DNA of 64,000 nt, from assembly GCF_000716545.1 (NCBI RefSeq), contig NZ_JNWZ01000015.1, forward strand, positions 124,001-188,000, read 5' to 3'. A program made the position numbers and the translations under genes. How positions within the stretch are numbered: position 1 is the stretch's first letter; each line of letters begins with the position of its first letter. Below the pieces are notes generated by a model, which saw nothing but the letters and a program-made list of their open reading frames with translations, made no database searches and was not told the origin of the DNA. This document shows, one piece after another, positions 20,035-38,170 of this stretch. Source of the stretch: Kitasatospora phosalacinea. GTDB lineage: Bacteria > Actinomycetota > Actinomycetes > Streptomycetales > Streptomycetaceae.

Positions 20035-22638
<2,604 letters not shown>

Positions 22639-22699
22639 TGCGGGCGTACCCCTCTCGTCTCGGGACTGGTACCAAGCTGCCGACTACAGCATGCACTAA

Positions 22700-22720
22700 G
22701 TTGAGTCTATTCCGCTCAGG
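22700..22720 (-). promoter_or_regulatory. HAIR element (HspR operator) at the clpB promoter
   Basis: On the plus strand, half-sites GTTGAGT and GCTCAGG are separated by 7 nt, against the known HAIR consensus CTTGAGT-N7-ACTCAAG. Reading toward clpB, a promoter with -35 TTGAAC (22726-22731), a 16-nt spacer and -10 TAGACT (22704-22709) overlaps it, so HspR bound here would block polymerase. HspR itself is encoded at 33584-34123. Confidence 0.8.
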
Positions 22721-22727
22721 TTTTGGT

Positions 22728-23654
22728 TCAAGCCCTCCGGGGCTTCGGTGCGACGACCGCCCGGGTCAGCCCCAGCAGCTCGCGGGCTGGCCCGGCCGGA
22801 CGCTGGCCGGACGGCCAGACCGCGCGCAGCGGGCGCTGCAGCTCCAGGCCGTCCAGCGGCACCGCCACCAGTCGGCGGGTGGCCAGCTCCTCCTTCACCG
22901 CCAGCTCGCTCAGGCACACCGGGCCCGCGCCGGTCATCGCGGCCGCCTTCAGCGCCGTCGAGGAGGCCAGCTCCAGCCGGGGCGCGGCCGGGCCGCCGTA
23001 CGGGGCGAGCGCCTCCTCCAGCACCTCCCGGGTGCCGGAGCCGACCTCGCGCAGCACCAGCGGGGTGGCGGCCAGTTCGGCGCCGGTCACCGGGGCGCGG
23101 CGGCGGGCCCAGCGGTGCTCGGGGGAGACCACCACCACCAGCCGGTCGGCGGCCACCACCGCGCCGGACAGGCCGGGCGGGGTGGAGGTGCCCTCGACGA
23201 AGCCCAGGTCGGCCTCGCCGGCCAGCACCTGGGCGGCCACGTCGTGCGAGTTGGCGGTGCGCAGGGTGACGGCGGTGCCCGGGCTGGCCTCGTTCAGGGC
23301 CAGCAGCCAGCCGGGCATCAGGTACTCGGCGACGGTCAGGCTGGCCACCACCCGCAGCCGGGCGTCCCGGCGGCCGCGCAGCGCATCGATCCCGGCGTCC
23401 AGCGCCTGCGCCGCCTCCACCACCTGCCGGGCCCACTCGACCACCAGCCGGCCCGCCTCGGTGGGCCGGGAGCCGCGCGGCGAGCGCTCCAGCAGCGGCA
23501 CCCCGATCTGCCGTTCCATGCCCTTGATCCGGGCGCTGGCGGCGGGCTGGCTGACGCCCAGTTCGGCGGCGGCCCGCCCGACGCTGCCCAGCCGGGCCAC
23601 GGCGAGCAGCAGCTCCAGGGCGCCGAGTTCCGGGACGTGCGGGGAGAGGGCCAT
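22728..23654 (-). CDS. LysR-family transcriptional regulator
   Basis: This 308-residue regulator has an N-terminal winged helix (ELLLAVARLGSVGRAAAELGVSQPAASARIKGMERQIG, about residues 13-48; Q and S recognition helix), a linker helix and a periplasmic-binding-like effector domain (about 90-295). It is divergent from the TDT-family exporter gene 70 bp away, the usual layout for a LysR protein controlling its neighbour. ATG 23654 overlaps the operator-like repeats described separately. Its 3' end contains the clpB promoter. Confidence 0.92.
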   Translation of the reverse strand: MALSPHVPELGALELLLAVARLGSVGRAAAELGVSQPAASARIKGMERQIGVPLLERSPRGSRPTEAGRLVVEWARQVVEAAQALDAGIDALRGRRDARLRVVASLTVAEYLMPGWLLALNEASPGTAVTLRTANSHDVAAQVLAGEADLGFVEGTSTPPGLSGAVVAADRLVVVVSPEHRWARRRAPVTGAELAATPLVLREVGSGTREVLEEALAPYGGPAAPRLELASSTALKAAAMTGAGPVCLSELAVKEELATRRLVAVPLDGLELQRPLRAVWPSGQRPAGPARELLGLTRAVVAPKPRRA

Positions 23655-23677
23655 AGGCCCAGGCTATGTCCTCATAG
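23653..23677. promoter_or_regulatory. LysR-box-like repeats in the lysR/TDT divergent promoter
   Basis: ATAG-N7-CTAT at 23653-23667 fits the T-N11-A LysR box, and CTATG-TCCT-CATAG at 23664-23677 overlaps it. The first overlaps the lysR start, consistent with autoregulation plus control of the exporter at 23725. Confidence 0.5.
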
Positions 23678-23724
23678 CGGACGGCCCGCTACCCGCGTCC
23701 CCGGCGGCGGCGGAGGGTGGGGCC

Positions 23725-24825
23725 ATGGCAACCCTCCTCGCGCCGCGCGCCGCCCTGCGCGGCCTCGACCTCTCCCGGCTCGGCCCCAACTGGTACGCCA
23801 CCGTGATGGGCACCGCGATCACCGGCAACGCCGCCGCCGCCCTGCCGGTGGAGCTGCCCGGGCGGACGGCCTTCGCCGAGGCGCTCTGGACGCTCTCGCT
23901 GCTGATGCTGGCCGCCCTGCTGGCCGGCCGCGCCGTCCACCTGGCCCGGCACCGCGAGCAGGCCCGGCACACCCTGCTGGAGGACCCGTCCGCCGCCGTC
24001 TTCTACGGCTGCCCGCCGATGGCCCTGCTGGCCGTGGGCCACGGCGCGCTGACCGTCGGCACCCCGCTGCTCGGCGACCGGCCCGCCCTCGCGCTGGACG
24101 CGCTGCTGTGGACGGTCGGCACGGCGTACGCGCTGGTGGTGGCCGCCGGGCTGCCGTACCTGATGATCACCCGGCACCGGCTGTCCGCGCTGGAGGCCAA
24201 CCCGACCTGGCTGCTGCCGGTGGTCGCCCCGATGGTGGCCGCCGCGTGCGGCCCCGCGCTCGTCCCGCACCTGCCGGAGGGGGCGGCCCGGCAGGCGGTG
24301 CTGTACGGCTGCGCGGCGATGCTCGGCGCCAGCCTGCTGGCCACCCTGGCGCTGCTGCCGGTGGTGCTCGGCGGGCTGCTGCACAGCAAGCTGCCCGTCC
24401 TGGCGCTCACCCCCTCGCTGTTCCTGGTGCTCGGGCCGCTCGGCCAGTCCACCACCGCCGTGCAGAAGTTCGCCGACGCCGTCCCGCTCGCCCTCCCCGG
24501 CGCCGGTCCGGGGGCGGTGGCGGTCGCCCGCGGGCTGGCCGAGGTGTACGGCGTGGCGGTGACGGGATTCGCCCTGCTCTGGCTGGCGGTGGCACTGGCC
24601 GCCAACCTGCGGGCACTGCGGGCCGGAATGCCGTTCGCGATGACCTGGTGGGCCGCCACCTTCCCGGTCGGAACGCTCGTCACCGGCGCGACCGGACTCG
24701 CCGCCCACACCGGATTCGCCGGATTCACCGCGCTCGCCGCCGCGCTCTACCTGCTGCTGTTCGCCGCCTGGGCGGTGGCGCTGGTGCGCACCGCGGCCGG
24801 CCTCCGGGCGGGCCGCCTGCTGTGA
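23725..24825 (+). CDS. TDT (tellurite-resistance/dicarboxylate transporter) family protein
   Basis: This 366-residue membrane protein has about ten hydrophobic helices and the family start RLGPNWYATVMGTAITGNAAAALP. The TDT/SLAC1 group includes sulphite exporters, malate transporters and TehA anion channels; the pairing with a CysB-like LysR regulator favours sulphite or a related anion, by inference. ATG 23725 follows GAGGGTGGGG. No soluble domain is fused. Confidence 0.87.
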   Translation: MATLLAPRAALRGLDLSRLGPNWYATVMGTAITGNAAAALPVELPGRTAFAEALWTLSLLMLAALLAGRAVHLARHREQARHTLLEDPSAAVFYGCPPMALLAVGHGALTVGTPLLGDRPALALDALLWTVGTAYALVVAAGLPYLMITRHRLSALEANPTWLLPVVAPMVAAACGPALVPHLPEGAARQAVLYGCAAMLGASLLATLALLPVVLGGLLHSKLPVLALTPSLFLVLGPLGQSTTAVQKFADAVPLALPGAGPGAVAVARGLAEVYGVAVTGFALLWLAVALAANLRALRAGMPFAMTWWAATFPVGTLVTGATGLAAHTGFAGFTALAAALYLLLFAAWAVALVRTAAGLRAGRLL

Positions 24826-25502
24826 ACTGGACGTATGCCGCACCGGGGAGGGGTCGGCCGGGGTCGGCGGGGTGCTGCCGGGTCGGTTCGCGGGCGGCCG
24901 TTATTCGGCGCGGCGCATTCCGGATCGGTGGATTCGGCGGAGGATTGTCGAATTCCGGGGGAGGTGGGTGACATTCCGGTCCAGGGTGACGCCACCGGCC
25001 CGCACGCCCCCTCCGCCGCTTTCCGAATGTATGTTCGGTGGAGGGGGGCAATGCGGCGGAAGCGGGATTCCGGGCGCCGCGCCGAGGCGTTTGCTGCATG
25101 TTCCTGCACTTGCGGGAACCTGCAGCCGGGGAGCACTTGTTCGGAGTCCGTCCCGCTGTGAGGGTGTAGTCACGCCAGGTCGTCCGGGGCAGCCGCAGCC
25201 CGAGTCGGCGACTTGCTCTTCGCGTGGGGGCGACAGGTGCGTTCGTATCTGCGCAACGGGGGGAAGAGCACCGGCCGGCACGCCACGTGTGGTGGTGGCT
25301 GCCGCAGCCGGATCGGTGAGGCGTTGCTGCTCCGCCTCCCCGAAGCGCCATGACGCTGGCGTGACACGAGCGGGTCCTCCGGGATCCGGGTGCCCACGGC
25401 ACCCGCCCCGGGGGACGCGCCCGTAACCGCGGGTGACTCCCGCCGTCGGACCGGACGGCCCTGCTGGGATCATCATCCGCAAACGGAGGAACACGGCAGG
25501 GA
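24826..25502. promoter_or_regulatory. Long gene-free region upstream of the regulator array
   Basis: This is 677 bases, relatively AT-richer than its surroundings, with no convincing gene. It contains a 34-bp interrupted dyad at 25093-25126 (GCTGCA-n-GTTCC, 10-nt spacer, GGAAC-n-TGCAGC), which could be an operator or RNA hairpin. GGAGGA at 25485-25490 and AGGGAG at 25498-25503 precede the first array gene. It is the only space available for the array promoter. Confidence 0.5.
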
Positions 25503-26603
25503 GTGCTCGACGTGGCAGCGGACCACCCGAAGTCCGAACCGGACACCGCACCGTCCCACCCGGACGGCGGGCCCTCGGACCGGAGCACCGCACCGTCCCA
25601 CCAGGACGGCGGACCGCTCGACCCGGACACCGGCCTGCCCGAGGAGGACGCCACCCGGCTCTACCTGGCCGTCCTCGCCGCCGGCGGCCGGATGCCGTTC
25701 GGCGCGCCGCCCGCGCTCGGCCCCGGCCTCACCCCCCAACGCCAACAGGCCCTGCTGGAACAGCTGGTGGGGGTCGGACTGCTCCTGCCCAACCGGATCG
25801 ACGGCTGCTACGTCGCGGTCAGCCCGCGCTCCGTCGCCGAACGCCTCGGCGCCGACCTGCGCTCCCGCGCCACCCGCCTGCTGCTCGACGCCGGCCGGCT
25901 GCCCGCCGCCCTCGACCCGCTCGCCCGCGCCTACGACGCCGTCCCCCGGCCCGCCGACCGGACCAGACGGACCGTCTACCTCGACAGCCGGGAGGACATC
26001 CGGCTGCGGCTCGCCCAACTGGTCTCCGACTGCCGCCTCGAACTGCTCAGCGCCCAACCCGGCCTGCGGCCCCCCGCCGTCCTCGAACTCGCCCACGCCC
26101 AGGACCGGCGGATGCTCGACCGGGGCGCCACCCTGCGCGCCCTCTACCAGCCCGTCGCGCTCAGCGAGGACAGCGCCGTCCGGCACGCCGCCTCGATGAC
26201 CGAGCACGGCGCCCAACTGCGCGTCCTGGACGAGCCGTTCCGCCGCCTGATCGTCATCGACCGGCGGACCGCCGTCATCCCCGCCGCCGAGGACCACAGC
26301 CGCGCCGCCTTCGTCGAGGACCCCGCCGCGATCGCCTACCTGGTGGCCGGCTTCGAACGCGACTGGGCCCGCGCCGAACAGGTCCACTGGCACCGCCTCG
26401 ACACCCGCAGCCTCACCCGCACCATCACCGACCGGGTCGGCCGCCTGCTCGCCCAGGGCCTCACCCAGCGCGCCGTCGCCACCCGCCTCGGCCTGTCCGA
26501 ACGCACCGTGGCCGGCCACATCTCCCGCCTGCGCGACCTGTACGGCGCCGGGACCCTGTTCCAGCTCGGCTGGCTGATGAGAGGCGGCGGCGGACGTGGC
26601 TGA
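25503..26603 (+). CDS. Array regulator 1: PLD-like sensor + LuxR-type HTH
   Basis: This 366-residue regulator is the first of six tandem paralogs. It has a Pro/Asp/Ser leader with a duplicated 14-residue unit (two 42-bp repeats at 25544-25627) and a winged-helix-like segment (DATRLYLAVLAAGGRMPFG). A PLD-like C-half without an HKD catalytic motif follows (RGATLRALYQPVALSEDS, RVLDEPFRRLIVIDRRTAVIPA). The C-terminal HTH is GLTQRAVATRLGLSERTVAGHI with terminal LFQLGWLMRG. Similar TrmB-like/LuxR proteins are common in Streptomyces as single genes. GTG 25503 is used; GTG 25512, 8 nt after AGGGAG, is an equal candidate. It overlaps the next gene by 8 nt. Confidence 0.85.
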   Translation: MLDVAADHPKSEPDTAPSHPDGGPSDRSTAPSHQDGGPLDPDTGLPEEDATRLYLAVLAAGGRMPFGAPPALGPGLTPQRQQALLEQLVGVGLLLPNRIDGCYVAVSPRSVAERLGADLRSRATRLLLDAGRLPAALDPLARAYDAVPRPADRTRRTVYLDSREDIRLRLAQLVSDCRLELLSAQPGLRPPAVLELAHAQDRRMLDRGATLRALYQPVALSEDSAVRHAASMTEHGAQLRVLDEPFRRLIVIDRRTAVIPAAEDHSRAAFVEDPAAIAYLVAGFERDWARAEQVHWHRLDTRSLTRTITDRVGRLLAQGLTQRAVATRLGLSERTVAGHISRLRDLYGAGTLFQLGWLMRGGGGRG

Positions 26604-27663
26604 CCCGACCCCGATCCCCGCGCCCGCCGCGGTCCCGGTGCCCGCCGCGCTGTCCGCCCCCGCCGTACTGCCCGCCCCCGCCGTACTGCCCGCCCCCGTC
26701 GTGCTGCCCGAGTGCGGGCCGATAGACGAACGGGCCTGGCGCCTCTACCTGGACGTCCTCGAAGCCGGCGGCCGGATCACGGCCGAGGCCGTCCCCGCCC
26801 GTGAGCCGCTCGCCGAACTGCTGCGCACCGGCCTGCTGGTGCCCGACGGCATGGACGCCTCCTACCTGGCCGTCAACCCCAGGTTCGTCGCCGACACCCT
26901 CGGCGCCGCGATGAACGCCGAAGCCGCCCGCCTGCTCAACCGGGCCGAGCGGCTGACCGCCGACCTCGACCCGCTGATCGCCGCCTACGACAGCGTGCCC
27001 CGCACGGCCGAGCCGGGCTCCGCCGGCACCCAGGTCACCGGACGCGAGCACGTCCGCCAGCGGATCGCCCAACTCGGCGCCGCCTGCCGGGAAGAGGCCC
27101 TGACCGCCCAGCCCGGAACCACCGGGCCCGCCGCCCTGGAACTGTCCCTGCGCCAGGAACTCCCGGTCCTGCGCCGAGGCTGCCGGATCCTCACCCTCTA
27201 CCAGCCGGCCGCACTCGCCGAGCCCGCCGTGATCCGCTACGCCGCGACCGTCACCAAGGCCGGCGGCGAGGTCCGGCTGCTCGACGAGCCCTTCCAGCGC
27301 ACCCTGGTCTTCGACCGCGCCACCGCCGTGGTGCCGGCCTCCGACGACCTCGACCGGGCCGCGGTGATCTCCGACCCCGCCACCGTGTCGATGATCGTCG
27401 CCAACTTCGACCGCGACTGGGACCGGGCCGAACGCGTCTGCTGGAACAGCCTGCTGGAGAGCGCCCCCACCCGGGCCGCCGCCGCCGACCGGGTCGGCCG
27501 CCTGCTCGCCCAGGGCCTCACCCAGAAGGCCATCGCCGCCCGCCTCGGCCTGTCCGAACGCACCGTGGCCGGCCACATCTCCCGCCTGCGCGACCGCTAC
27601 GGCGCCGACACGCTGTTCCAACTCGGCTGGCTGATGCGGAGGGGCGGCGAGCACGATGCCTGA
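26596..27663 (+). CDS. Array regulator 2: PLD-like sensor + LuxR-type HTH
   Basis: This 355-residue paralog of its neighbours starts at GTG 26596 inside the 3' end of gene 1 (8-nt overlap). The first about 38 residues are a Pro-Ala-Val repeat (APAVLP twice, then APVVLP), probably a flexible leader. Then come the winged-helix block (ERAWRLYLDVLEAGGRITAE), the PLD-like block (RILTLYQPAALAEPAVIRYA, RLLDEPFQRTLVFDRATAVVPA) and HTH GLTQKAIAARLGLSERTVAGHI. The 3' HTH-coding DNA is almost identical to that of gene 1, suggesting recent duplication or gene conversion. Confidence 0.85.
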   Translation: MADPTPIPAPAAVPVPAALSAPAVLPAPAVLPAPVVLPECGPIDERAWRLYLDVLEAGGRITAEAVPAREPLAELLRTGLLVPDGMDASYLAVNPRFVADTLGAAMNAEAARLLNRAERLTADLDPLIAAYDSVPRTAEPGSAGTQVTGREHVRQRIAQLGAACREEALTAQPGTTGPAALELSLRQELPVLRRGCRILTLYQPAALAEPAVIRYAATVTKAGGEVRLLDEPFQRTLVFDRATAVVPASDDLDRAAVISDPATVSMIVANFDRDWDRAERVCWNSLLESAPTRAAAADRVGRLLAQGLTQKAIAARLGLSERTVAGHISRLRDRYGADTLFQLGWLMRRGGEHDA

Positions 27664-28624
27664 CACCCCACCGGCCACCACCGCCCCGGCCCCGCCGTAC
27701 GCGGCGCCGAACGAGGCGGAGAAGGCGCTGTACCTGTCCGTGTTGCGGGCGGGCCGGGCCTCGTTGCGGGAGGTGATGGAGCAGGACGCGGCCTCGGCCG
27801 CCCGGCTGCTGGAGATCGGCCTGCTGAGCCGGTACGCCTACCAGGAGTGGGTGGTGGCGATGAACCCGCGCGTCGCCACCGCGAAGCTGGCCGCCGCGCT
27901 CCGGGAGGGCGCCGGTGACCTGCTGTCCCGTGCCGACAGCTCCGGCGACGGCCTCGGCGAACTGGCCGACTCGTACGACGCCGCCCAGCAGCGCACCCAC
28001 ATCGCCCACGTGTTCGGGCAGGACCGGATCCAGCAGCGGCTGCTGGCGATCGAGTCCGACCACTGGGACGAGGCGATGGCCGCCCAACCCGGCCCGCGCG
28101 CGCCCGAGTTCCTGACCGAGAACCCCCGGATCCGAGCCGCGCTCGCCCGTGGCGCGACCGCCGACATCCTGTACCAGCCGGTCACCCGGCGGACCCCGCA
28201 CACCGTCGCCTACGCGGCGGCGGCCACCGACTGGGGCATGCGGCTGCGCGTCCTCGACGAGCCGTTCGCCCGCATGATGATCTTCGACCGCCGAATCGCC
28301 GTCATCGCCACCGCCGGGGACAACCGCAGCGGCGCCGCGTTCATCGAGGACCGCGCCGTGGTCGACCACCTGGTCAAGCTGTTCCAACGGGACTGGGAGC
28401 GGGCCGTCCGCGTGCCGTGGTTCGACGAGGTGGGCCGGGAGCTGCCGGAAGTGCTGAGCCGGGTGGGTGAGTTGCTCGCAGCGGGCCTGACCCAGAAGGC
28501 GGTCGCCTCCCGCCTGTCGCTGTCCGAGCGGACGGTGGCCGGGCACATCGCCCGGCTGCGCGAGCGCTACGACGCCGAGACGCTGTTCCAGCTCGGCTGG
28601 CTGATGCGGGACGGGGCCCGGTGA
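27656..28624 (+). CDS. Array regulator 3: PLD-like sensor + LuxR-type HTH
   Basis: This 322-residue paralog starts at ATG 27656, overlapping gene 2 by 8 nt. A short Pro/Ala/Thr leader is followed by NEAEKALYLSVLRAGRASLREVMEQD (winged-helix part), ILYQPVTRRTPHTVAYAAAATDWG and RVLDEPFARMMIFDRRIAVIAT (sensor), and GLTQKAVASRLSLSERTVAGHI (HTH). The conserved MEQD element shared with genes 5 and 6 suggests genes 3-6 form a subgroup distinct from 1-2. It overlaps gene 4 by GTGA. Confidence 0.85.
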   Translation: MPDTPPATTAPAPPYAAPNEAEKALYLSVLRAGRASLREVMEQDAASAARLLEIGLLSRYAYQEWVVAMNPRVATAKLAAALREGAGDLLSRADSSGDGLGELADSYDAAQQRTHIAHVFGQDRIQQRLLAIESDHWDEAMAAQPGPRAPEFLTENPRIRAALARGATADILYQPVTRRTPHTVAYAAAATDWGMRLRVLDEPFARMMIFDRRIAVIATAGDNRSGAAFIEDRAVVDHLVKLFQRDWERAVRVPWFDEVGRELPEVLSRVGELLAAGLTQKAVASRLSLSERTVAGHIARLRERYDAETLFQLGWLMRDGAR

Positions 28625-29166
28625 ACAGCCTGCTGAACGACGACGCCCGCCGGCTCTACCGCGAGATCCTCGGCCGGGGCGGCCGGGTGATGTTCCGTGA
28701 GTCGATGCAGCGCGCCCCTGACGCCACTCGGCGTCTGATCGACCTCGGTCTACTGGTGCACTTCGGGAGGGAGGAGTCACTGACGGCCGTCAACCCGCGT
28801 GCGGTCGCCGCCCGGCCCGGCGGTGCCCGCCCCACGCGGATCCTGCGAGAGACCCTGGTCCGCGACCGGCGGTCCCTCGCGGCCGGGATCTCCCTGCGCA
28901 CCCTCTACCGGCCCGGTGTGCTCACGCACCGCCCCACCGTCTCGTACGCGGCTTCCGCGACCAGGGCGGGCGAGTGCTTCCGGGTCCTGGACGAGCCGTT
29001 CCTGCGGATGCTGGTCTTCGACCGCAAGGTCGCCGTCATTCCCGCCGCGCACGGTGACAGCAGCGCCGTGTTCGTCGAGGACCCGGCGCTCGTCGCCCTG
29101 CTGCGCGAGCACCACGGCGCCGAGTCGCTCTTCCAACTCGGCTGGCTGATGCGCGGAGGAAGCTGA
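28621..29166 (+). CDS. Array regulator 4: shortened paralog lacking the HTH
   Basis: This 181-residue paralog begins at GTG 28621 (overlap GTGA with gene 3). It keeps the winged-helix block (DDARRLYREILGRGGRVMFRES) and sensor block (LRTLYRPGVLTHRPTVSYAA, RVLDEPFLRMLVFDRKVAVIPA). Relative to its neighbours it lacks about 80 residues of the middle helical region and, after DPALVALLREHHG, about 65 residues containing the entire LSERTVAGHI helix-turn-helix, rejoining at ESLFQLGWLMRG. Both deletions keep the frame and the ribosome site for gene 5 is intact. It may be a sensor-only partner or a decaying copy. Confidence 0.75.
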   Translation: MNSLLNDDARRLYREILGRGGRVMFRESMQRAPDATRRLIDLGLLVHFGREESLTAVNPRAVAARPGGARPTRILRETLVRDRRSLAAGISLRTLYRPGVLTHRPTVSYAASATRAGECFRVLDEPFLRMLVFDRKVAVIPAAHGDSSAVFVEDPALVALLREHHGAESLFQLGWLMRGGS

Positions 29167-29167
29167 G

Positions 29168-30178
29168 ATGACGCTCCGGCTGCCCAACGAGGCCGAGCGC
29201 GCCCTGTACCGCGAAGTCGTCGCGCAGGGCGGGATGGTGCTGCTCCGCGAGGCGATGGAGCAGGACCCGGACGCCACCCTCGGGCTGATCGGGCTCGGGC
29301 TGCTGCTCCACCACGACCACGGGGAGATGCTGACGGCCGCTCACCCCGGGTCGCTCGGCGAGCGGTTGAGCGCCGAACTGCGCAGCTCGGCCACGGAGAA
29401 GCTGCTGGCGGCCGAGCACGCCGCGACCCGGCTGGAGGACCTGGTGCAGGCGTACGACGCCATCGCGCGCCGCGGCCGTTCGGCGCGGCCGCTGCAACTG
29501 GTGGCGGGACCGCAGATCTCGCACCACATCGCCCGGATCGAGTCCGAGATGCGCGAGGAGACGCTGGCGTCCCAGCCCGGTGGGGCCCGGCCGGTCCACG
29601 GCATGCAGCAGACCAGGGTGCGCTCGCTGGGCTTCCTGGCGAAGGGCATCGGACTGCGCTCGATCTACCAACCGGGTGCGCTCCTCGACCCGCCCACCGT
29701 CTCGTACGCGGCCGAACTCACCGCCGCGGGAGAGCGGTTCAGGGTCCTGGACGAGCCGTTCCGGCGGATGGTGATCTTCGACCGGCGGGCCGCGGTGGTC
29801 TCGGCGGCCCCGGACGACCGCCAGGCGGTGCTGGTGGAGGACCCGGCGGTGCTGGCCGTCCTGGTGGGCCTGTTCGAGCGCGACTGGGCGCGGGCCGAGC
29901 GGGTCGACTGGCAGGCGCTGGCCGGGGGCCCCCGGGAGACCGGCGTCCCGCCGGAGCTGACCGGCCTGCTCGCGGCGGGCCTGACCCAGCGGGCGATCGC
30001 CTCCCGACTGGGCATCTCCGAGCGGACGGTGGCCGGGCACATCGCCCGGCTGCGGGAGTTCTACGATGCGGAGACCCTGTTCCAGCTCGGCTGGCAGCTG
30101 CGGGGGGCGTCCGAACGACCCGCCGTACCGCTGGGGGAGGACCCGGGTCGGACGGCCGAGGAGGAGTGGGACCTGTGA
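29168..30178 (+). CDS. Array regulator 5: PLD-like sensor + LuxR-type HTH
   Basis: This 336-residue paralog has ATG 29168 preceded by GGAGGAAG and one base after the gene 4 stop. It shows PNEAERALYREVVAQGGMVL and REAMEQDPDA (N-terminal block), the helical LEDLVQAYDAIARRG, then LRSIYQPGALLDPPTVSYAA and RVLDEPFRRMVIFDRRAAVV (sensor) and GLTQRAIASRLGISERTVAGHI (HTH). An acidic 25-residue tail ends EEEWDL. It overlaps gene 6 by GTGA. Confidence 0.85.
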   Translation: MTLRLPNEAERALYREVVAQGGMVLLREAMEQDPDATLGLIGLGLLLHHDHGEMLTAAHPGSLGERLSAELRSSATEKLLAAEHAATRLEDLVQAYDAIARRGRSARPLQLVAGPQISHHIARIESEMREETLASQPGGARPVHGMQQTRVRSLGFLAKGIGLRSIYQPGALLDPPTVSYAAELTAAGERFRVLDEPFRRMVIFDRRAAVVSAAPDDRQAVLVEDPAVLAVLVGLFERDWARAERVDWQALAGGPRETGVPPELTGLLAAGLTQRAIASRLGISERTVAGHIARLREFYDAETLFQLGWQLRGASERPAVPLGEDPGRTAEEEWDL

Positions 30179-31167
30179 GCGAGCCGAACGGAGCCGCCCT
30201 GCCGAGCGAGTCGGAGCGGCGGCTGTACCAGCAGGTCCTGGAGCAGGGCGGGCGGGTGTCGTTCCGCGAGGCGGTCGAGCAGGACCCGACCGGGGTGCTG
30301 CGGCTGATGGAGCTCGGCCTGCTGGCGCACGACGCCGCCGAGCAGGTGCTGACGGCGGTCAACCCGCGCGCGGTCAGCGACCGGATCAGTGCCGAGCTGC
30401 GCGCCGAGGGCACCCGGATGCTGCTGCGCGCCGAGGAGATGCCGACGCTGCTGGAGGACCTCACCCACGCCTACGACGCGACCCCGCGCCGGGCCGACCG
30501 CTCCAGCGTGGTGCAGCACGTCGACCGGACCGAGCAGATCCGGCACCGCGTCCTGCAGTTGGCGAGCGAGGCGTACGAGGAGGAGCTGTCCCTGCACCCG
30601 GGTGGGGCCGGGCCGGCCGATCTGCTGGAGGAGGCGCTGGAGCGCACCCGGCGCTTCCTGGAGCGCGGGGCGACCATCCGCACCGTCTACGAGCCGACCG
30701 CGCTGCTGGACGAGACGACGGTCCGCTGGGCGGAGAGGGTCACCGGTTGGGGAGGCCGGTTCCGCACCTTGAGCGAACCCTTCAGCAGGATGTTGATCTT
30801 CGACCGCCGGATCGCCGTCGTTCCGGCGTCGGCCGACAATTCGAGTGCCGCGTTCATCGAGGACCCGGCGGTGGTCTCGTTCCTGGTCGCCGCCTTCGAG
30901 CGGGACTGGGAGCGGGCCGAACGGATCCAGTGGCGCTCCGCCGAGCACGAGGGCGAGAGCGTGGTGCCGGTCCACGAACAGGTGGGCCGACTGCTCGCCC
31001 AGGGCCTGACCCAGAAGACCATCGCCTCCCGGCTGGGCCTCGGCGAGCGCACCGTCGCCGCGCACATCTCGCGACTGCGCGAACTCCACGACGCGGAGAC
31101 CCTGTTCCAGCTGGGCTGGCAGATGCGGGGAGCCGGGGAACCGCGTGACGGGGGCGCGGGCGACTGA
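30175..31167 (+). CDS. Array regulator 6: PLD-like sensor + LuxR-type HTH
   Basis: This 330-residue last operon member starts at GTG 30175, chosen over GTG 30166 because GAGGAG lies 8 nt upstream and the GTGA overlap with gene 5 repeats the operon style. Blocks are SESERRLYQQVLEQGGRVSF, FREAVEQDPTGV, LTAVNPRAVSDRISAELR, IRTVYEPTALLDETTV, RTLSEPFSRMLIFDRRIAVV and HTH GLTQKTIASRLGLGERTVAAHI. The HTH is slightly divergent (GERTVAAH). It ends 7 bp from the convergent gene at 31175 with no terminator visible between them. Confidence 0.85.
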   Translation: MSEPNGAALPSESERRLYQQVLEQGGRVSFREAVEQDPTGVLRLMELGLLAHDAAEQVLTAVNPRAVSDRISAELRAEGTRMLLRAEEMPTLLEDLTHAYDATPRRADRSSVVQHVDRTEQIRHRVLQLASEAYEEELSLHPGGAGPADLLEEALERTRRFLERGATIRTVYEPTALLDETTVRWAERVTGWGGRFRTLSEPFSRMLIFDRRIAVVPASADNSSAAFIEDPAVVSFLVAAFERDWERAERIQWRSAEHEGESVVPVHEQVGRLLAQGLTQKTIASRLGLGERTVAAHISRLRELHDAETLFQLGWQMRGAGEPRDGGAGD

Positions 31168-31174
31168 CGCGCGG

Positions 31175-31783
31175 TCAGCCGGTGGCGATCTCCGGGGACC
31201 AGAAGCCGTACGGGCCGGCGTGCTCGCGGCGCGGCCGCGGGAACTGGTCGCCGGGCGCGGTCCAGAAGCCGCCGCGCAGCGACAGCGCCATCCCGGCCCA
31301 GTCCAGCGCGGTCTCCACGGTGTGGTGCAGCGCCTCCTGCGACCAGGTGTCGTCGAAGACCAGCGGCAGCACCGGCGCGACCTGCTCGATGGTCGCGATC
31401 AGCGGGTTGTGCGTGATCGCCTCGTCCACCAGCAGCACGATCGGCTTGCGCAGCGCCGAAGCCCAGCCGAGCTCCAGGCTCACCCCGGCCGACAGCGGCG
31501 CACCGACGTACGCGAACACCAGGTCCGCGCTCTGCATCGCCCGGAAGTCGGAGGGCACCCGCTGTTCCGGCGCCCGTCCCGCCACCGTCCACGCGTCACT
31601 GTGGTGCGCGCTGTACACCGCGGCCCCGCTGTCCAGCAGCGTGCTCCGCAACGTGGTCAGCCTGGTCCGGCTCGCCAACGTCACCACACTGTCCGCCGGC
31701 CCGGTCAGCCGCATCAGCGGCGCGGCCAGGAAGACCCGTGCGCGGCGCCCTTCGGCGCGGTGCTGCAGGTGGTGCTCACTCAT
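31175..31783 (-). CDS. Nucleoside 2-deoxyribosyltransferase-like protein
   Basis: This 202-residue cytoplasmic protein has the NDT-type Rossmann-like fold: ARVFLAAPLMRLTG at the start, RAMQSADLVFAYVGAPLSAGVSLELGWA (conserved Asp and the Glu of the G-x-x-x-E-x-G-x-A motif) and LRKPIVLLVDE. These proteins cleave or exchange N-glycosidic bonds of nucleosides or related nucleotides. Many actinobacterial homologues sit in signalling or biosynthetic loci with unknown substrates. ATG 31783 follows GGAG with 5-nt spacing; in-frame upstream sequence is not domain-like. It lies between the regulator array and the secreted peptide gene, possibly part of the same system. Confidence 0.75.
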   Translation of the reverse strand: MSEHHLQHRAEGRRARVFLAAPLMRLTGPADSVVTLASRTRLTTLRSTLLDSGAAVYSAHHSDAWTVAGRAPEQRVPSDFRAMQSADLVFAYVGAPLSAGVSLELGWASALRKPIVLLVDEAITHNPLIATIEQVAPVLPLVFDDTWSQEALHHTVETALDWAGMALSLRGGFWTAPGDQFPRPRREHAGPYGFWSPEIATG

Positions 31784-32183
31784 GTCGACTCCGGGGGTGT
31801 GGTGAATCGGCCACTGCCGCCACGTGTCCGCGTTCGCCGGAACGGTGGGTGGGAAGCCCGAAGATTGCCGCACTCCGGGTTCGGTGGCCGTGATGGACGT
31901 GCTGATTCTGCTTCTGCCGTTACGACTAGCTGATCGTCCATCGCCGGGTGTCAACGAGTCCACTGGCGCACGGTGTCATCTGGCTGCCTGGCGGATAGAT
32001 GACACCCGGCCGCACCCGCTTCCCCGCCTGCGCCGACATGCTCATTTCATCGACTGGATCACTGTGGCAGTCGGGGCGGGGTGACGCCAAGGCACTTGGT
32101 AGGGAATCATATGTAGAAAATCGGTGCGGCCATCGTTCGTAGGGGCGGTGCTCGCGGTGGGTTTGTCCGAAAGGAGTGGTGTT
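31784..32183. promoter_or_regulatory. Control region between NDT-like gene and secreted peptide
   Basis: This is 400 bases with several dyads. A perfect 10-bp inverted repeat GGTGTCATCT / AGATGACACC has a 15-nt spacer (31972-32006), and a further GGTGTCA half-site lies at about 31947-31953. CCAAG-GCA-CTTGG at 32087-32099 is followed by an AT-rich stretch (32104-32122) that could hold the peptide -10 region. No gene was seen here. Confidence 0.5.
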
Positions 32184-32336
32184 GTGTTGAAGGCCCGTCG
32201 TATCCTGATATCGGCTGTTCTTCTGAGTGTCGCTGTGTTCCTCGGGGCCAGCGCGGCGAGCGCGGACTCTCACCCGCAGACCGCCAAGACCGCTGTGTCA
32301 TCGATCGCCGCAGTGAGCATGGACAGCGCCTGGTAG
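32184..32336 (+). CDS. Small secreted peptide precursor (50 aa, C-terminus SMDSAW)
   Basis: The start GTG 32184 (TTG 32187 is possible) follows a strong AAGGAG with 7-nt spacing. The product starts MLKARRILISAVLLSVAVFL, a classical signal peptide (basic n-region, hydrophobic core), with an AxA-type cleavage site after ASAASA around residue 27. That leaves about 23 residues ending VSMDSAW. There is no Cys for disulphides, no lipobox and no lantibiotic-like core. Size and form match secreted signal-peptide precursors. It converges on regulator 7 with a 28-bp gap. No family is recognised; a role as a signal read by the paralogous regulators is inference. Confidence 0.7.
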   Translation: MLKARRILISAVLLSVAVFLGASAASADSHPQTAKTAVSSIAAVSMDSAW

Positions 32337-32364
32337 GACTCCCGGCGGCAGGGGGTCGTCGGGC

Positions 32365-33366
32365 TCAGTTCGCCGGCCCCTCCGCCCGGGCGATCTTCCA
32401 TCCGAGTTGGAAGAGCGTCTCCACTCCGTATTCCTCGCGCATCTCGGCGATGTGGCGGGCGAGAGTGCGTTCGCTGAGCCCGAGGCGCCGGGCGATCGTG
32501 CGGTGGGCGATGCCCTCCAGCATCATGCGGACGATCTGCTTGCGCATGCTGGAAACCACCTGCGGCGGTATTTCGTGGTCGCCGGTGAAGGGGATGGCGC
32601 GTTCCCACTGGCTGTTGAACACGCTGATGATGTAACTGATGACGGCATCGTCCCGGACGAAAGCCGCGCGGTCGCGGTCCTGCCCGTCCCCGGTGGTGAT
32701 GACGGCGACCTTCCGGTCGATCACGATCAGCTTCGCGAAGGCCTCGTCCAGTGTTCTCACCTGGCAACCTCCCTGGGTCACCGCGTGGACGTAGTTGATC
32801 GTGGGATTCGAATAGCGCGCGCTCGGCTGGTAGATCGTCCTGATGGTTCCGCCGCGCTCCACGAATTCCAGATCGCGGGCGATCGCTATTTTGATGTCGT
32901 CCTCACCGCGTCCGCCGCCGGGTTGGGCGGTGAGCATTTCGTGCGAGGCGCCGGCCATGATCGCCGACAGGCTCTCATTGATGCTCCAGCGGCCTTGGAG
33001 GTACTCGACGGTTCCGCCGGATTCGGGATGAACGATGTGGTCCTGGTATTCCTGGTGGAGTTCCAGTAGGAGTTGACTGGTCGCGATGGAGCGCTGGAGG
33101 ATTTTAGCGGCCTCGAGCTGGAAGCCGAGCGTCATGGTTTCGGCCAGCTGTTGCGGGTCCTTTACCGCGTACGTCCCCGGCAGGCCGATCTCGGGCTGCA
33201 GCAGTCCGAGGTCCAACAACTCCTGCAGCGCGGGTTCCTCTCCACCGGCGGGAAGGGGACGGCGCCCGGCCAGCCTCCCCCCGTTCTGCACGGCCTGGCT
33301 GTAGAGGGACCTGGCCTCCACGGAAAGGCCGGGGGCCGCGACGGGGTTCCTTCGCTCAGTGCTCAT
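32365..33366 (-). CDS. Array regulator 7 (stand-alone): PLD-like sensor + LuxR-type HTH
   Basis: This 333-residue paralog lies on the opposite strand, facing the peptide gene. Blocks are SVEARSLYSQAVQNGGRLAG, IRTIYQPSARYSNPTINYV, RTLDEAFAKLIVIDRKVAVI and HTH HRTIARRLGLSERTLARHI, ending LFQLGWKIA. It is more divergent than array members 1-6 and has lower GC, more varied codons. ATG 33366 is chosen because AAGGAG lies 8 nt before it; an ATG two codons upstream is too close to that site. Its pairing with the peptide suggests it is the best candidate for a cognate receptor. Confidence 0.85.
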   Translation of the reverse strand: MSTERRNPVAAPGLSVEARSLYSQAVQNGGRLAGRRPLPAGGEEPALQELLDLGLLQPEIGLPGTYAVKDPQQLAETMTLGFQLEAAKILQRSIATSQLLLELHQEYQDHIVHPESGGTVEYLQGRWSINESLSAIMAGASHEMLTAQPGGGRGEDDIKIAIARDLEFVERGGTIRTIYQPSARYSNPTINYVHAVTQGGCQVRTLDEAFAKLIVIDRKVAVITTGDGQDRDRAAFVRDDAVISYIISVFNSQWERAIPFTGDHEIPPQVVSSMRKQIVRMMLEGIAHRTIARRLGLSERTLARHIAEMREEYGVETLFQLGWKIARAEGPAN

Positions 33367-33522
33367 GTTCATGACTCCTTGCCTGAGCTGGGGCCTTTCG
33401 GCGGAGTTGACGCGCACCTTCCGGCCCGCATCATAGGGCGAAGGCTCCTCCACTCCCCCCCGGATTACCGGACTGCGGACGGGCTCGCGGCACTTCCGGA
33501 AAAGAACTTTGGCAGGACGACG

Positions 33523-33565
33523 ACGCCGCCGACACCCCCCGAACGGTAGGGGGTGCCGGCGGCGT
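33523..33565 (-). terminator. Terminator after the dnaK operon (hspR 3' end)
   Basis: ACGCCGCC-GACACCCC pairs with GGGGTGC-CGGCGGCGT with a single mismatch, around the loop CCGAACGGTA-like sequence. It sits 19 bases downstream of the hspR stop and separates it from regulator 7. Confidence 0.75.
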
Positions 33566-33583
33566 GGTGCTTTTCGGCCGCGC

Positions 33584-34123
33584 TCAGCGCTTGGGCCGCC
33601 ACACCACCAGTGCGCTGGACTGCTGGACCTGCTGGTAGGGCACCAGGTCGCGGCGGTAGGAGGCGTGGACGGCGGCCTCGCGCTGCTGGAGGGTGGCGGC
33701 GGCGCCCTCCAGGGCGTCGACGAGTTCGGCGACCCGGGACTGCAGGGCGGCCACCTGGTTCTCCAGCTCGATGATGCGCTTGATTCCGGCCAGGTTGATG
33801 CCCTCGTCCTGGGAGAGCCGCTGGACCTCGCGCAGCTGCTGGATGTCCCGGGCGGAGTACCGGCGGCCGCGACCGGCCGTGCGGTCGGGGCTGACCAGGC
33901 CGAGGCGGTCGTACTGGCGGAGGGTCTGCGGGTGCAGGCCGGAGAGCTCGGCGGCGACGGAGATGACGTAGACCGGGGTGTCCTCGGTGAGGACGTACGG
34001 CGGGGCGGCGGCGCGCGGGCGGCCGCCGCCGGGCAGGCCCTCGCCGAGCCCGGGACCGGGGCCGATCCGGCCGGTGACGCCGGGGCCCTCGCCGCCGTGG
34101 GGACTGTCGGGGTGGGGACTCAT
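33584..34123 (-). CDS. hspR: Heat-shock repressor HspR (MerR family)
   Basis: This 179-residue autorepressor of the dnaK operon and clpB binds HAIR elements, with DnaK acting as co-repressor in Streptomyces. The MerR winged helix is VYVISVAAELSGLHPQTLRQYDRLGLVSPDRTAGRGRRYS (about residues 50-90), followed by a coiled-coil dimerisation helix (IKRIIELENQVAALQSRVAEL). A Gly/Pro-rich 45-residue N-terminal leader is longer than in many homologues. ATG 34123 lies 7 nt past the dnaJ stop. Matching HAIR sites are at 22700, 37881 and 37933. Confidence 0.96.
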   Translation of the reverse strand: MSPHPDSPHGGEGPGVTGRIGPGPGLGEGLPGGGRPRAAAPPYVLTEDTPVYVISVAAELSGLHPQTLRQYDRLGLVSPDRTAGRGRRYSARDIQQLREVQRLSQDEGINLAGIKRIIELENQVAALQSRVAELVDALEGAAATLQQREAAVHASYRRDLVPYQQVQQSSALVVWRPKR

Positions 34124-34130
34124 CGGGATC

Positions 34131-35282
34131 TCACGCTCCCTCCGCCGCCTTGAACAGGGCGGCTCGCGGGTCGTCCGAGGCGGTGGCCTCGCGGTACTGC
34201 TCCAGTGCGGTCAGCGCGTCTCCGGTGACGTGCCTGGGCACCGTGACCTCCACGGTGACCAGCAGGTCGCCGCGGGTGCCGTCCTTGCGGGTGGCGCCCT
34301 TGCCCCGGGCCCGCATGGTCAGGCCGTTGGCGCTGCCGGGCGGCAGCTTGAGCTTCACGGCCGGGCCGTTCAGGGTCGGCACCTCGATGGTGCCGCCGAG
34401 CGCGGCTTCGGGGAAGCTCACCGGCACGGTCACGGTGAGGTTGTCGCCCTTGCGCCCGAACACCGGGTGCGCGTCGACGTGCACGGTGACGTAGAGGTCT
34501 CCGGGCTGGCCGCCGCGCTCGCCCTGGGCGCCCTTGCCCTTGAGCCTGATCCGCTGGCCGTCCTGCACCCCGGCCGGGATGCGGACCTGCATGGTGCGGG
34601 CGGAGGAGGCCCGGCCGCTGCCGTGGCAGACGGTGCACGGGTCGTCGACGATCATGCCGCGGCCCTTGCAGTCCCGGCAGGGCTCGGAGAGCGCGAAGGC
34701 GCCCTGGCCGCGGCTGACGGTGCCGGCGCCGACGCAGGTCGGACAGACCCGCGGGGTGGTGCCGGCCTTGGCGCCCGTCCCGGCGCAGGCGCGGCAGGCG
34801 GCCTGGGAGGTCATCCGCAGCGGCACGGTCGCGCCGTCCACGGCCTCCTCGAAGTTCAGCGTGACCTCGGTCTCGACGTCCGCCCCGCGGCGCGGCTGCG
34901 CGGTCTGCCGGCCGCCGCGGTTGAACAGGCCGCCGAACACGTCGCCGATGCCGCCGCCGCCCGTGCCGCCCCCGCCGTTGAACAGGTCTCCGAAGTCGAA
35001 GCCGCCGGCCGCGCCGCCCGCCCCGCCGGGGCGGAAGCCGCCGCCCGCGAACAGCGAGCGGGCCTCGTCGTACTCCTTGCGGCGCTTCTCGTCGGAGAGC
35101 ACGTCGTAGGCCTCGGAGATGTCCTTGAACCGCTCCTCGGCCTTGGTGTCGCCCTTGTTCGCGTCCGGGTGGAACTCGCGGGCCAGCTTGCGGTAGGTCT
35201 TCTTGATCTCGGCGGCGGTGGCGTCCTTGGGCACGCCGAGGACCTTGTAGTAGTCCTTCTCCACGTAGTCCTTAGCGCTCAT
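34131..35282 (-). CDS. dnaJ: Co-chaperone DnaJ
   Basis: This 383-residue type-I J protein stimulates DnaK ATPase. The J domain has HPD at residues 38-40 (LAREFHPDANKGD), followed by a Gly/Phe-rich region (about 75-120). Four zinc-finger CxxCxGxG repeats (CRACAGTG, CPTCVGAG, CRDCKGRG, CTVCHGSG) and the C-terminal substrate-binding domains follow. It is the third gene of the dnaK operon, separated from grpE by 136 nt containing a long stem-loop. Confidence 0.98.
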   Translation of the reverse strand: MSAKDYVEKDYYKVLGVPKDATAAEIKKTYRKLAREFHPDANKGDTKAEERFKDISEAYDVLSDEKRRKEYDEARSLFAGGGFRPGGAGGAAGGFDFGDLFNGGGGTGGGGIGDVFGGLFNRGGRQTAQPRRGADVETEVTLNFEEAVDGATVPLRMTSQAACRACAGTGAKAGTTPRVCPTCVGAGTVSRGQGAFALSEPCRDCKGRGMIVDDPCTVCHGSGRASSARTMQVRIPAGVQDGQRIRLKGKGAQGERGGQPGDLYVTVHVDAHPVFGRKGDNLTVTVPVSFPEAALGGTIEVPTLNGPAVKLKLPPGSANGLTMRARGKGATRKDGTRGDLLVTVEVTVPRHVTGDALTALEQYREATASDDPRAALFKAAEGA

Positions 35283-35356
35283 GGCCTTTGACCGCCACCT
35301 CCCGGAATCCCGAAGTTCTGTTGCGAAGCGACACCGCGGTGCGGGGCCGTGATACG

Positions 35357-35405
35357 GCGCTGCGGAGCCGGCCGTCGTACTGGACGACGTACGACTCCGC
35401 AGCGC
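35357..35405. promoter_or_regulatory. Long two-tier hairpin between grpE and dnaJ
   Basis: The outer stem GCGCTGCGGAG / CTCCGCAGCGC is a perfect 11 bp and the inner stem CGTCGT / ACGACG closes a 5-nt loop. There is no T-run. It may partially terminate transcription or act as an mRNA processing/stability element that sets dnaJ-hspR levels relative to dnaK-grpE. Confidence 0.6.
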
Positions 35406-35418
35406 ACGGGGACTCTAC

Positions 35419-36005
35419 TCAGCTGTCGGACGAACCGTCACCCTGGTCGTCGTCCGGCTCGCCGGTGGTCTGGGTGCCCGGCTGGGGCTCCGCGACCGCG
35501 ACCATCGCCGGGCGGATGATCCGCTCGCCGATCCGGTACCCGGGCTGGAGGATCTGCACGCAGGTGTCCTCTGTCACGTCCGACGAGTAGCTGTGCATCA
35601 GCGCCTCGTGGATCGTCGGGTCGAAGGGCTCGCCCTCCTTGCCGAACTGCTGCAGCCCGAGCTTGGCGACGACCGTCTCCAGCGACTCGGCGACCGACTT
35701 GAAACCGCCCGTCACCTCGCCGTGCTCGCGGGCCCGGCCGATGTCGTCCAGCACCGGGATCAGCGACTCCAGGATGCTGGAGACCGCGATCTCCCGGACG
35801 GTGGCCCGGTCGCGCTCGACCCGCTTGCGGTAGTTCTGGTACTCGGCCTGGAGCCGCTGCAGGTCGGCGGTGCGCTCGCCGGCCTCGCGCTTGGCGGCGG
35901 CCAGTTCGTCGGCACCCGCACCCGCGACGGCCTCCTCGGCTGCCTTGAGCACGGCCTCCTCGGCGGCGGAGTCGTCGCCGGGCTGCTCGCCCTGCGGCTT
36001 CTCCG

Positions 36006-36009
<4 letters not shown>
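35419..36009 (-). CDS. grpE: Nucleotide exchange factor GrpE
   Basis: This 196-residue dimer releases ADP from DnaK. The acidic N-terminus and long coiled coil (residues about 35-90, with [19 protein letters not shown]) lead into the beta-wing domain ([44 protein letters not shown]). The C-terminus is acidic. Start ATG 36009 overlaps the dnaK stop (ATGA). Confidence 0.98.
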
Positions 36010-37859
<1,850 letters not shown>

Positions 37860-37880
37860 CGTGAATACCTCCGAGGAGAA

Positions 37881-37901
37881 GTTGAGCAGTACGGGCTCAA
37901 G
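37881..37901 (-). promoter_or_regulatory. HAIR element 1 upstream of dnaK
   Basis: GTTGAGC-N7-GCTCAAG matches the HspR consensus CTTGAGT-N7-ACTCAAG in 11 of 14 positions. It sits immediately downstream of a promoter with -35 TTGACG (37923-37928), a 17-nt spacer and -10 CATCCT (37900-37905), so it would block initiation or clearance. Confidence 0.88.
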
Positions 37902-37932
37902 GATGCACGAACCGTCCGGCGGCGTCAACAGC

Positions 37933-37953
37933 TTTGAGCCAGTCGCGCTCAAC
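37933..37953 (-). promoter_or_regulatory. HAIR element 2 upstream of dnaK
   Basis: TTTGAGC-N7-GCTCAAC lies just upstream of the -35 element. A third half-site nearby makes GCGCTCA-N7-TGAGCGC (37945-37965), sharing the inner half-site, so several HspR dimers may bind. Multiple HAIRs are typical of streptomycete dnaK promoters. Confidence 0.8.
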
Positions 37954-38170
37954 TTTACTGAGCGCTTATGTCGCCGGGCTCGTGGCGGCTCCGCCGGACG
38001 GGTGAGTCTGGGCTTAGTGACTGCCGCCATACCTTGAACATCTTCTGGCCGGGTGTTAACGCGCGGTAATCTCCGGACGCGTCGACCCTGCAAGTTACCG
38101 CCCAGTACACTCTGGGGAGACCGGGAAGACTGGGAAAGCCCCGGACATAGCCGCTGGAGACGGAGAGCCG

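What the first reader, a model, noticed from the sequence alone, without database searches (positions are those of the whole stretch)
25503..33366. Seven-member array of paralogous PLD-like/LuxR-type regulators around a secreted peptide gene
Six paralogs form one operon with 8-, 8-, 4-nt overlaps, a 1-nt gap and a 4-nt overlap, and a seventh faces a small secreted peptide. Each shares a winged-helix block, a non-catalytic PLD-like sensor block (xLYQPxxL, RVLDEPFxRMxIFDRRxAVI) and an HTH (LSERTVAGHI). Single copies are common in Streptomyces, but I know of no six-gene tandem operon of them. The sensor halves differ while HTHs are conserved, as expected if several receptors read different ligands and act on the same sites, or if they form hetero-oligomers. 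I infer a multi-receptor peptide-sensing system.
Basis: partly seen in the sequence, partly recalled or inferred. Interest (0 to 1): 0.88.

Follow-up and report, generated by a model that had tools for sequence, protein, structure and literature searches.

The report
Streptomyces peptide-signal locus with receptor array
Beside the heat-shock genes of Kitasatospora and Streptomyces lies a conserved locus that seems to make a tiny secreted peptide signal (ending in Asp-x-x-Trp, often repeated) together with a family of regulators, one of which has evolved in step with the peptide, so it may be an unrecognised cell-to-cell signalling system of antibiotic-producing bacteria.

Summary
The array is real: six tandem paralogues plus a convergent seventh (g7), with the stated spacings, although g4 lacks the linker and the HTH. 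It is not unique. All 54 distinct Kitasatospora-type loci examined have one g7 and 1-8 further copies beside hspR-dnaJ; related loci sit in the same niche in Streptomyces. The decisive feature is the peptide. All 54 loci (2 of 910 control intervals) and all 85 Streptomyces loci with a conserved promoter palindrome encode a secreted-type propeptide with D-x-x-W motifs, 1-20 copies. The two variable residues mostly agree inside a propeptide (0.82; 0.97) but differ between loci (0.13; 0.24), as in pherotypes. In Kitasatospora the motif covaries with g7 beyond species distance (0 of 999 permutations), mostly in its PLD-like domain, and not with the two array positions tested. Long palindromes precede the peptide (54 of 54) and the array (45 of 54) and are nearly unique per genome. 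Best reading: a short secreted peptide read by a TrmB/PLD-like LuxR-HTH regulator controlling its own locus; it works like RRNPP pheromone systems with another receptor fold. Mature peptide, uptake, binding and output are inferred. The probable S. coelicolor counterpart, SCO3664, gives >50-fold more actinorhodin when disrupted. No description was found in the papers searched.

The parts
25093..25126 (.). Op-A: 34-bp near-palindrome GCTGCATGTTCCTGCACTTGCGGGAACCTGCAGC upstream of the array; candidate operator
   Evidence: PWM hit 410 bp before g1; found before the first full array copy in 45 of 54 loci, elsewhere in the locus in 7 more, absent in 2; 0 hits in the reversed loci; one site in G000
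25503..26603 (+). g1, array paralogue 366 aa
26596..27663 (+). g2, array paralogue 355 aa, GerE/LuxR HTH above cut-off
27656..28624 (+). g3, array paralogue 322 aa
28621..29166 (+). g4, shortened paralogue 181 aa without linker and without HTH (reading frame open)
   Evidence: no Pfam or NCBIfam match; gaps in A1; three split matches
29168..30178 (+). g5, array paralogue 336 aa
30175..31167 (+). g6, array paralogue about 330 aa (first possible start 30166)
31175..31963 (-). nucleoside 2-deoxyribosyltransferase-like ORF (probable start near 31783), divergent from the peptide gene
   Evidence: Nuc_deoxyrib_tr E 3e-6, 27.8 bits, just under the 28.8 cut-off; homologous ORF in 54 of 54 loci
31974..32004 (.). 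Op-P: 31-bp nested palindrome TGTCATCT-N3-TGCCTGGC-N4-AGATGACA between the NDT-like gene and the peptide gene; candidate operator
   Evidence: 54 of 54 loci; 0 of 2,347,477 reversed bases above score 13; one site in G000
32184..32336 (+). propeptide, 50 aa: signal peptide-like start, one degenerate repeat (DSHP), intact C-terminal DSAW
   Evidence: propeptides in the same place in 54 of 54 loci, 2 of 910 control intervals
32365..33366 (-). g7, candidate cognate receptor-regulator, 333 aa (TrmB/PLD-like sensor plus LuxR-type HTH)
   Evidence: exactly one per locus in 54 of 54; covaries with peptide motif; model and fold

Best explanation
A peptide-signalling locus. Step 1 (gene seen, expression inferred): a small propeptide with a Sec-type signal is made and exported. 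Step 2 (inferred): proteases free a short peptide built on D-x-x-W, often from several tandem copies; the two middle residues define the strain's type. Step 3 (inferred): the peptide re-enters through an oligopeptide permease. Step 4 (covariation shown, binding inferred): it is bound by the PLD-like, TrmB-type domain of g7, which lacks the catalytic motif. Step 5 (palindromes shown, which protein binds which is inferred): g7 acts through its LuxR-type HTH, perhaps also its N-terminal winged helix, at Op-P and so controls the peptide gene and the divergent NDT-like gene; the array proteins, whose HTHs are alike but differ from that of g7, act at Op-A and control their own operon. The array is a fast-evolving, duplicating side arm (1-8 copies, some decaying), possibly modulators or partners of g7. 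In Streptomyces the simpler form has the peptide and one regulator sharing a divergent promoter with one palindrome.
Against: No transcript, peptide, uptake or binding data. The partial correlations are small (0.15-0.23). In g7 the N part (0.116) and HTH (0.127) also correlate, not only the PLD-like part (0.191). In Streptomyces R1 and R3 are not separated on their common set (n=38: 0.163, 14 of 499, and 0.150, 18 of 499), and HspR, the control, also has 1 and 3 columns with z>5 there. The nearly unique palindromes suggest a purely local regulon, which leaves the cellular output unclear. Only 27 of 54 Kitasatospora-type propeptides have two or more motifs, and the window's own has one intact motif. 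20 of 80 Streptomyces genomes lack the palindrome at one mismatch and were not followed. The Op-P matrix was built from 17 sites of these same loci and the Op-A matrix was refined on them, so only the genome-wide scans and reversed controls are independent.
Confidence: 0.6

Rival explanations
1. The secreted repeats are an antimicrobial, toxin-like or RiPP-like product (repeated cores released by proteolysis) and the regulators merely control its production.
For: Repeated short cores behind a secretion signal also occur in ribosomal peptide products (recalled); variation of the core between strains would fit arms-race evolution.
Against: Between array and g7 there are only 1.1-2.0 kb, occupied by the NDT-like ORF and the propeptide gene, with no room for a typical modification-export-immunity set; the rest of the intervals was not annotated systematically. 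Covariation of the core with a cytoplasmic-type regulator is not expected of a product acting on others.
Confidence: 0.13
2. One reading: the array members are several receptors for different ligands, or hetero-oligomer partners, acting on the same sites.
For: Sensor parts differ more than HTHs among the five full copies (0.62/0.54 against 0.24); one shared Op-A before the array in 45 of 54 loci; copy number 1-8.
Against: First and last array copies do not covary with the local peptide; array copy number does not follow the number of peptide repeats (Spearman -0.11, p 0.42); higher divergence outside the HTH is the rule in regulators. Other array positions and foreign ligands were not tested.
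Confidence: 0.12
3. Ordinary duplicating regulators with a neighbouring secreted peptide of another role (for example envelope or secretion-stress function tied to the chaperone genes clpB and dnaK); the covariation is residual phylogeny.
For: The niche is conserved: hspR on the g7 side in 54 of 54 loci, clpB on the array side in the 49 of 54 whose stretch shows it; correlations are modest; duplicates decay (short members in 4 of 54 loci).
Against: The two array positions tested, of the same protein family and the same locus, do not show the covariation; near-identical repeats inside and different motifs between propeptides; regulator-peptide pairs also lie away from the chaperones (L195, L204, L208).
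Confidence: 0.15

Closest known systems
RRNPP/RRNPPA peptide pheromone systems (Rap-Phr, NprR, PlcR, PrgX, Rgg/ComR, AimR) of Bacillota
   Same: Small exported propeptide next to the gene of a cytoplasmic-type regulator; short core, sometimes in tandem copies (PMC11343458 and PMC10075063: search listings and starts of abstracts only); strain-specific types (recalled).
   Different: Receptor is not TPR-based: TrmB/PLD-like sensor with LuxR-type HTH; core is D-x-x-W; host is Streptomycetaceae; uptake route unknown.
TrmB/TrmBL regulators of archaea (5bpd, 3qph, 2f5t)
   Different: Known TrmB ligands are sugars (recalled; the title of 2f5t names a sugar-binding domain); a C-terminal LuxR HTH or a linked peptide is not known to me there (recalled, not searched).
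SCO3664-SCO3666 of Streptomyces coelicolor (LuxR-family genes of unknown ligand)
   Same: Lengths 327 and 394 aa of SCO3665/SCO3666 (PMC3282765, one passage with its table) equal those of the adjacent members in L183 (first-start ORFs); insertion in SCO3664 raises actinorhodin >50-fold (PMC6585502, passages).
   Different: Equivalence rests on gene order and lengths, not on sequence from a named S. coelicolor record; the passages read do not mention a peptide.

Membership tests
RRNPP/RRNPPA pheromone receptors | TPR repeat peptide-binding domain | tested here: not met
   No TPR match in Pfam (E up to 0.1) for any of the seven; the best-modelled domain of g7 is PLD-like
RRNPP/RRNPPA pheromone receptors | adjacent small secreted propeptide with short core | tested here: met
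   54 of 54 and 85 of 85 loci; secretion judged from sequence only
RRNPP/RRNPPA pheromone receptors | mature peptide imported and bound in the cytoplasm | not testable with these tools
   needs peptidomics, permease mutants and binding assays
TrmB-type regulators (PLD-like sensor) | PLD-like fold without catalytic HKD | tested here: met
TrmB-type regulators | N-terminal winged helix of the family | tested here: inconclusive
   no Pfam hit at the N-terminus; TrmBL2 alignment covers model residues 39-288 with rmsd 18.9
LuxR/NarL-type regulators (GerE HTH) | GerE HTH at the C-terminus above the Pfam cut-off | tested here: inconclusive
   g2, g3, g5, g6 above 23.5 bits; g1 and g7 23.2, just below; g4 none
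LuxI/LuxR acyl-homoserine-lactone systems | autoinducer-binding domain and LuxI synthase | tested here: inconclusive
   no autoinducer-binding domain among the Pfam matches of the seven; LuxI itself was not searched for

The most novel reading that the evidence does not exclude
A family-wide peptide language of Streptomycetaceae: a 4-6 residue pheromone D-x-x-W(x) whose two middle residues encode dozens of strain types, read by a new class of pheromone receptor (TrmB/PLD-like with LuxR HTH) and gating antibiotic production; the 1-8 array paralogues are a variable set of receptors or decoys that read the types of other strains (eavesdropping), which is why they do not covary with the strain's own peptide.
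Probability: 0.2. Interest if true: 0.95.

Novelty: new variant of a known kind. Interest (0 to 1): 0.85.

Why it matters
As far as I know (recalled), Streptomyces signalling is described through gamma-butyrolactones and related small molecules, and an imported oligopeptide signal has been postulated from the BldK permease (passages of PMC11303876) without an agreed gene (recalled). A conserved peptide gene with a candidate receptor, candidate operators and a probable known mutant phenotype (actinorhodin up more than 50-fold) makes peptide signalling in antibiotic producers directly testable with synthetic peptides, offers a possible switch for silent antibiotic clusters, and would add a new receptor fold to peptide quorum sensing.

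Tried and rejected
'Unique six-gene operon': rejected, genus-wide. 'All members intact regulators': rejected for g4. Array size following the number of peptide repeats: no relation. A link to the BldK signal by mass: the core DTIWS of L183 is 620.28 Da and SDTIWS 707.31; the 655 Da I recall for that signal fits neither, so no claim is made. Known RNA element in the locus: no Rfam match at gathering score in 22000-36000. Defence-system reading: the few PADLOC hits are weak (best E 4e-5) and mostly at the HTH. A regulon beyond the locus: the pattern scans show no second strong site outside the locus; only weak 2-mismatch Op-P sites in G014 and G019. Distant paralogues elsewhere in the own genome (7 loci, about 1.5 kb each side): no convincing propeptide; the one motif-bearing ORF (L015) looks like a chance out-of-frame ORF. 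Prior description: nothing found in searches; the library lacks most subscription papers and all preprints. Not done: the covariation test over every array position, 3D clustering of covarying residues (no coordinates given), a second structure model, the remaining 26 Streptomyces handles.

Rows dropped: L130 and L136 (no g7) before the 54; 77 loci were reduced to 54 by identical g7 ends; 2 of 54 before the Mantel test (first or last array copy under 250 aa); L192 (no palindrome) before the 85; Streptomyces tests used only loci with a full-length regulator and HspR in range (55 and 41 of 85). The first filter missed the peptide in 3 of 37 loci; these were found by hand, and the wider filter finds all. 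Hits under 100 bits were left out of copy counts.
Full report
What is there. I call that genus Kitasatospora and the other large genus of the family (g23) Streptomyces; the latter rests on named peptide hits and on one contig length equal to a S. hawaiiensis record. Between clpB (20035-22638, minus) and hspR-dnaJ-grpE-dnaK (33584-38093, minus), identified by NCBIfam, stand a LysR-type gene, an unassigned ORF, six tandem paralogues g1-g6, an NDT-like ORF, a small propeptide gene and the convergent paralogue g7. g4 lacks the linker and the HTH. g7 probably starts at 33366, since its Met30 is nearly invariant.

Not unique. In 37 of 37 genomes of the genus there is one g7 and 1-8 further copies on the opposite strand. 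With 40 of the 42 named loci added and duplicates removed there are 54 loci, each with exactly one g7; hspR lies on the g7 side in 54 of 54, clpB on the array side in the 49 whose stretch shows it, and the array lies left of g7 in 53; in L138 (Streptacidiphilus) the single other copy is on the hspR side. Full-length array copies number 1 (12 loci), 2 (16), 3 (10), 4 (3), 5 (5), 6 (5), 7 (2) and 8 (1). In the Streptomyces loci the same interval holds 1-4 related genes.

The peptide. In 54 of 54 loci a propeptide of 47-138 aa with a signal-peptide-like start lies beside the 3' end of g7 and carries 1-6 copies of D-x-x-W (two or more in 27), mostly at the very C-terminus. The same finder gave 2 hits in 910 control intervals, and 0 of 910 against 49 of 54 for a C-terminal motif. 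In Streptomyces 85 of 85 loci with the divergent palindrome have a propeptide, with D, E or N in the first place and up to 20 motifs; 25 of these loci were chosen by the regulator gene and 60 by the palindrome. That finder hits 14 of 830 control intervals; an exactly repeated motif is in 70 of 85 against 0 of 830. Within one propeptide the two variable residues agree in 0.818 (Kitasatospora, 74 pairs) and 0.967 (Streptomyces, 648 pairs) of comparisons; between loci 0.133 (1431 pairs) and 0.238 (3570). The window keeps one intact motif, DSAW; where close relatives have a first copy (DSYW or DSHW) it reads DSHP. A profile search finds 385 related proteins among 7993 candidates scored; the 120 listed have no Pfam domain and bear names such as hypothetical, uncharacterized or (putative) secreted protein, two also 5'-nucleotidase.

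Which protein goes with the peptide. After removing species distance (DnaJ and HspR), motif distance correlates with g7 distance (0.18, 0 of 999 permutations) but not with the last (0.036, 143) or first array copy (-0.014, 660), n=52. By region of g7: PLD-like 0.191 (0 of 499), HTH 0.127 (0), N part 0.116 (1). Alignment columns with z>5 for the first and second variable residue: g7 25 and 22, of which 20 and 13 lie in the PLD-like region, with residue 173 at the top of both lists; last array copy 0 and 1 (its best 7.3); first 1 and 1; DnaJ and HspR reach at most 4.8 in the residue tests and 6.5 for residue classes. In Streptomyces the divergent regulator R1 gives 0.225 (0 of 499, n=55) and the convergent R3 0.084 (64 of 499, n=41), but on the 38 loci that have both the two are alike (0.163 and 0.150), and HspR itself has 1 and 3 columns above z 5. 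So the second genus repeats the link between peptide and regulators without singling out one of them.

Candidate operators. Op-P, TGTCATCT-N3-TGCCTGGCA-N3-AGATGACR, sits upstream of the peptide gene in 54 of 54 loci, in 34 with its start 118-150 bp before the peptide start, in 10 as two copies; 0 of 2,347,477 reversed bases reach score 13. In 23 of 23 genomes of the genus it is found there and, two weak 2-mismatch sites apart, nowhere else; in 0 of 14 genomes of other genera. Op-A lies before the first full array copy in 45 of 54 loci and elsewhere in the locus in 7 more; 19 of 19 genomes of the genus have it, 0 of 12 others. Streptomyces have one palindrome, TCCTG-N6-CAGGAACATGATGC, in the divergent promoter of peptide and R1: exactly once in 60 of 80 genomes, none in the other 20 at one mismatch, 0 in controls; in an earlier set 15 of 20 genomes at up to 3 mismatches. 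Op-P is nested, with an outer and an inner dyad; a dimer with two DNA-binding domains per chain would fit this, which is inference. Among the five full array copies the HTHs differ by 0.24 on average, from g7 by 0.51, which fits two operators; which protein binds which is not shown.

Function. PMC3282765 lists SCO3665 (327 aa) and SCO3666 (394 aa) as LuxR-family genes (one passage). In L183 adjacent members have the same lengths, 327 and 394, with a 345-aa member next to them divergent from the peptide, so SCO3664 is probably that member; the numbering of clpB and hspR in S. coelicolor is recalled. Insertions in SCO3664 raised actinorhodin more than 50-fold (PMC6585502 passages). SCO2686, another LuxR-family gene in the first paper's table, is listed in PMC6585502 as a down-modulator too; its membership was not tested.

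Reading. The sum is best explained by a secreted oligopeptide signal with strain types, read by g7 (Kitasatospora) or by R1 and its neighbours (Streptomyces), and controlling its own locus. It works like RRNPP systems but fails their defining TPR feature. The array remains the least explained part: it duplicates and decays, has its own operator, and its first and last members do not track the local peptide. Receptors for foreign types, decoys or partners of g7 are all open.

Noticed in passing
window about 25130-25340; upstream of arrays in other loci: Conserved leader-like sequence between Op-A and g1: GAGGCGTTGCTGCTCCGCCTC (hairpin GAGGCG-N9-CGCCTC in 41 of 54 loci) and words of TTGCTCTTC and GGGGGGAAGAG in 35-37 of 54; possibly a structured 5' leader. 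No Rfam family matches.
   Followed up: partly
31175-31963: NDT-like (nucleoside 2-deoxyribosyltransferase-like) ORF sits in 54 of 54 Kitasatospora-type loci, divergent from the peptide across Op-P, but was seen in none of the 25 Streptomyces loci with the palindrome listed; it may be the output enzyme of the system.
   Followed up: partly
   Followed up: partly
L230: Propeptide with 20 counted D-x-x-W motifs, most of them DTKW, an extreme repeat expansion.
   Followed up: no
L198, L199; L223, L251, L253, L262; L172, L174, L191, L258, L184, L217: Streptomyces propeptides in which the first motif residue is E (EPTW, EISW) or N (NSSW, NTSW, NTVW) instead of D.
   Followed up: no
G014:C5:630609-630639, G019:C1:701127-701157: Weak (2-mismatch) Op-P-like sites outside the locus; possible extra targets, neighbours not read.
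   Followed up: no
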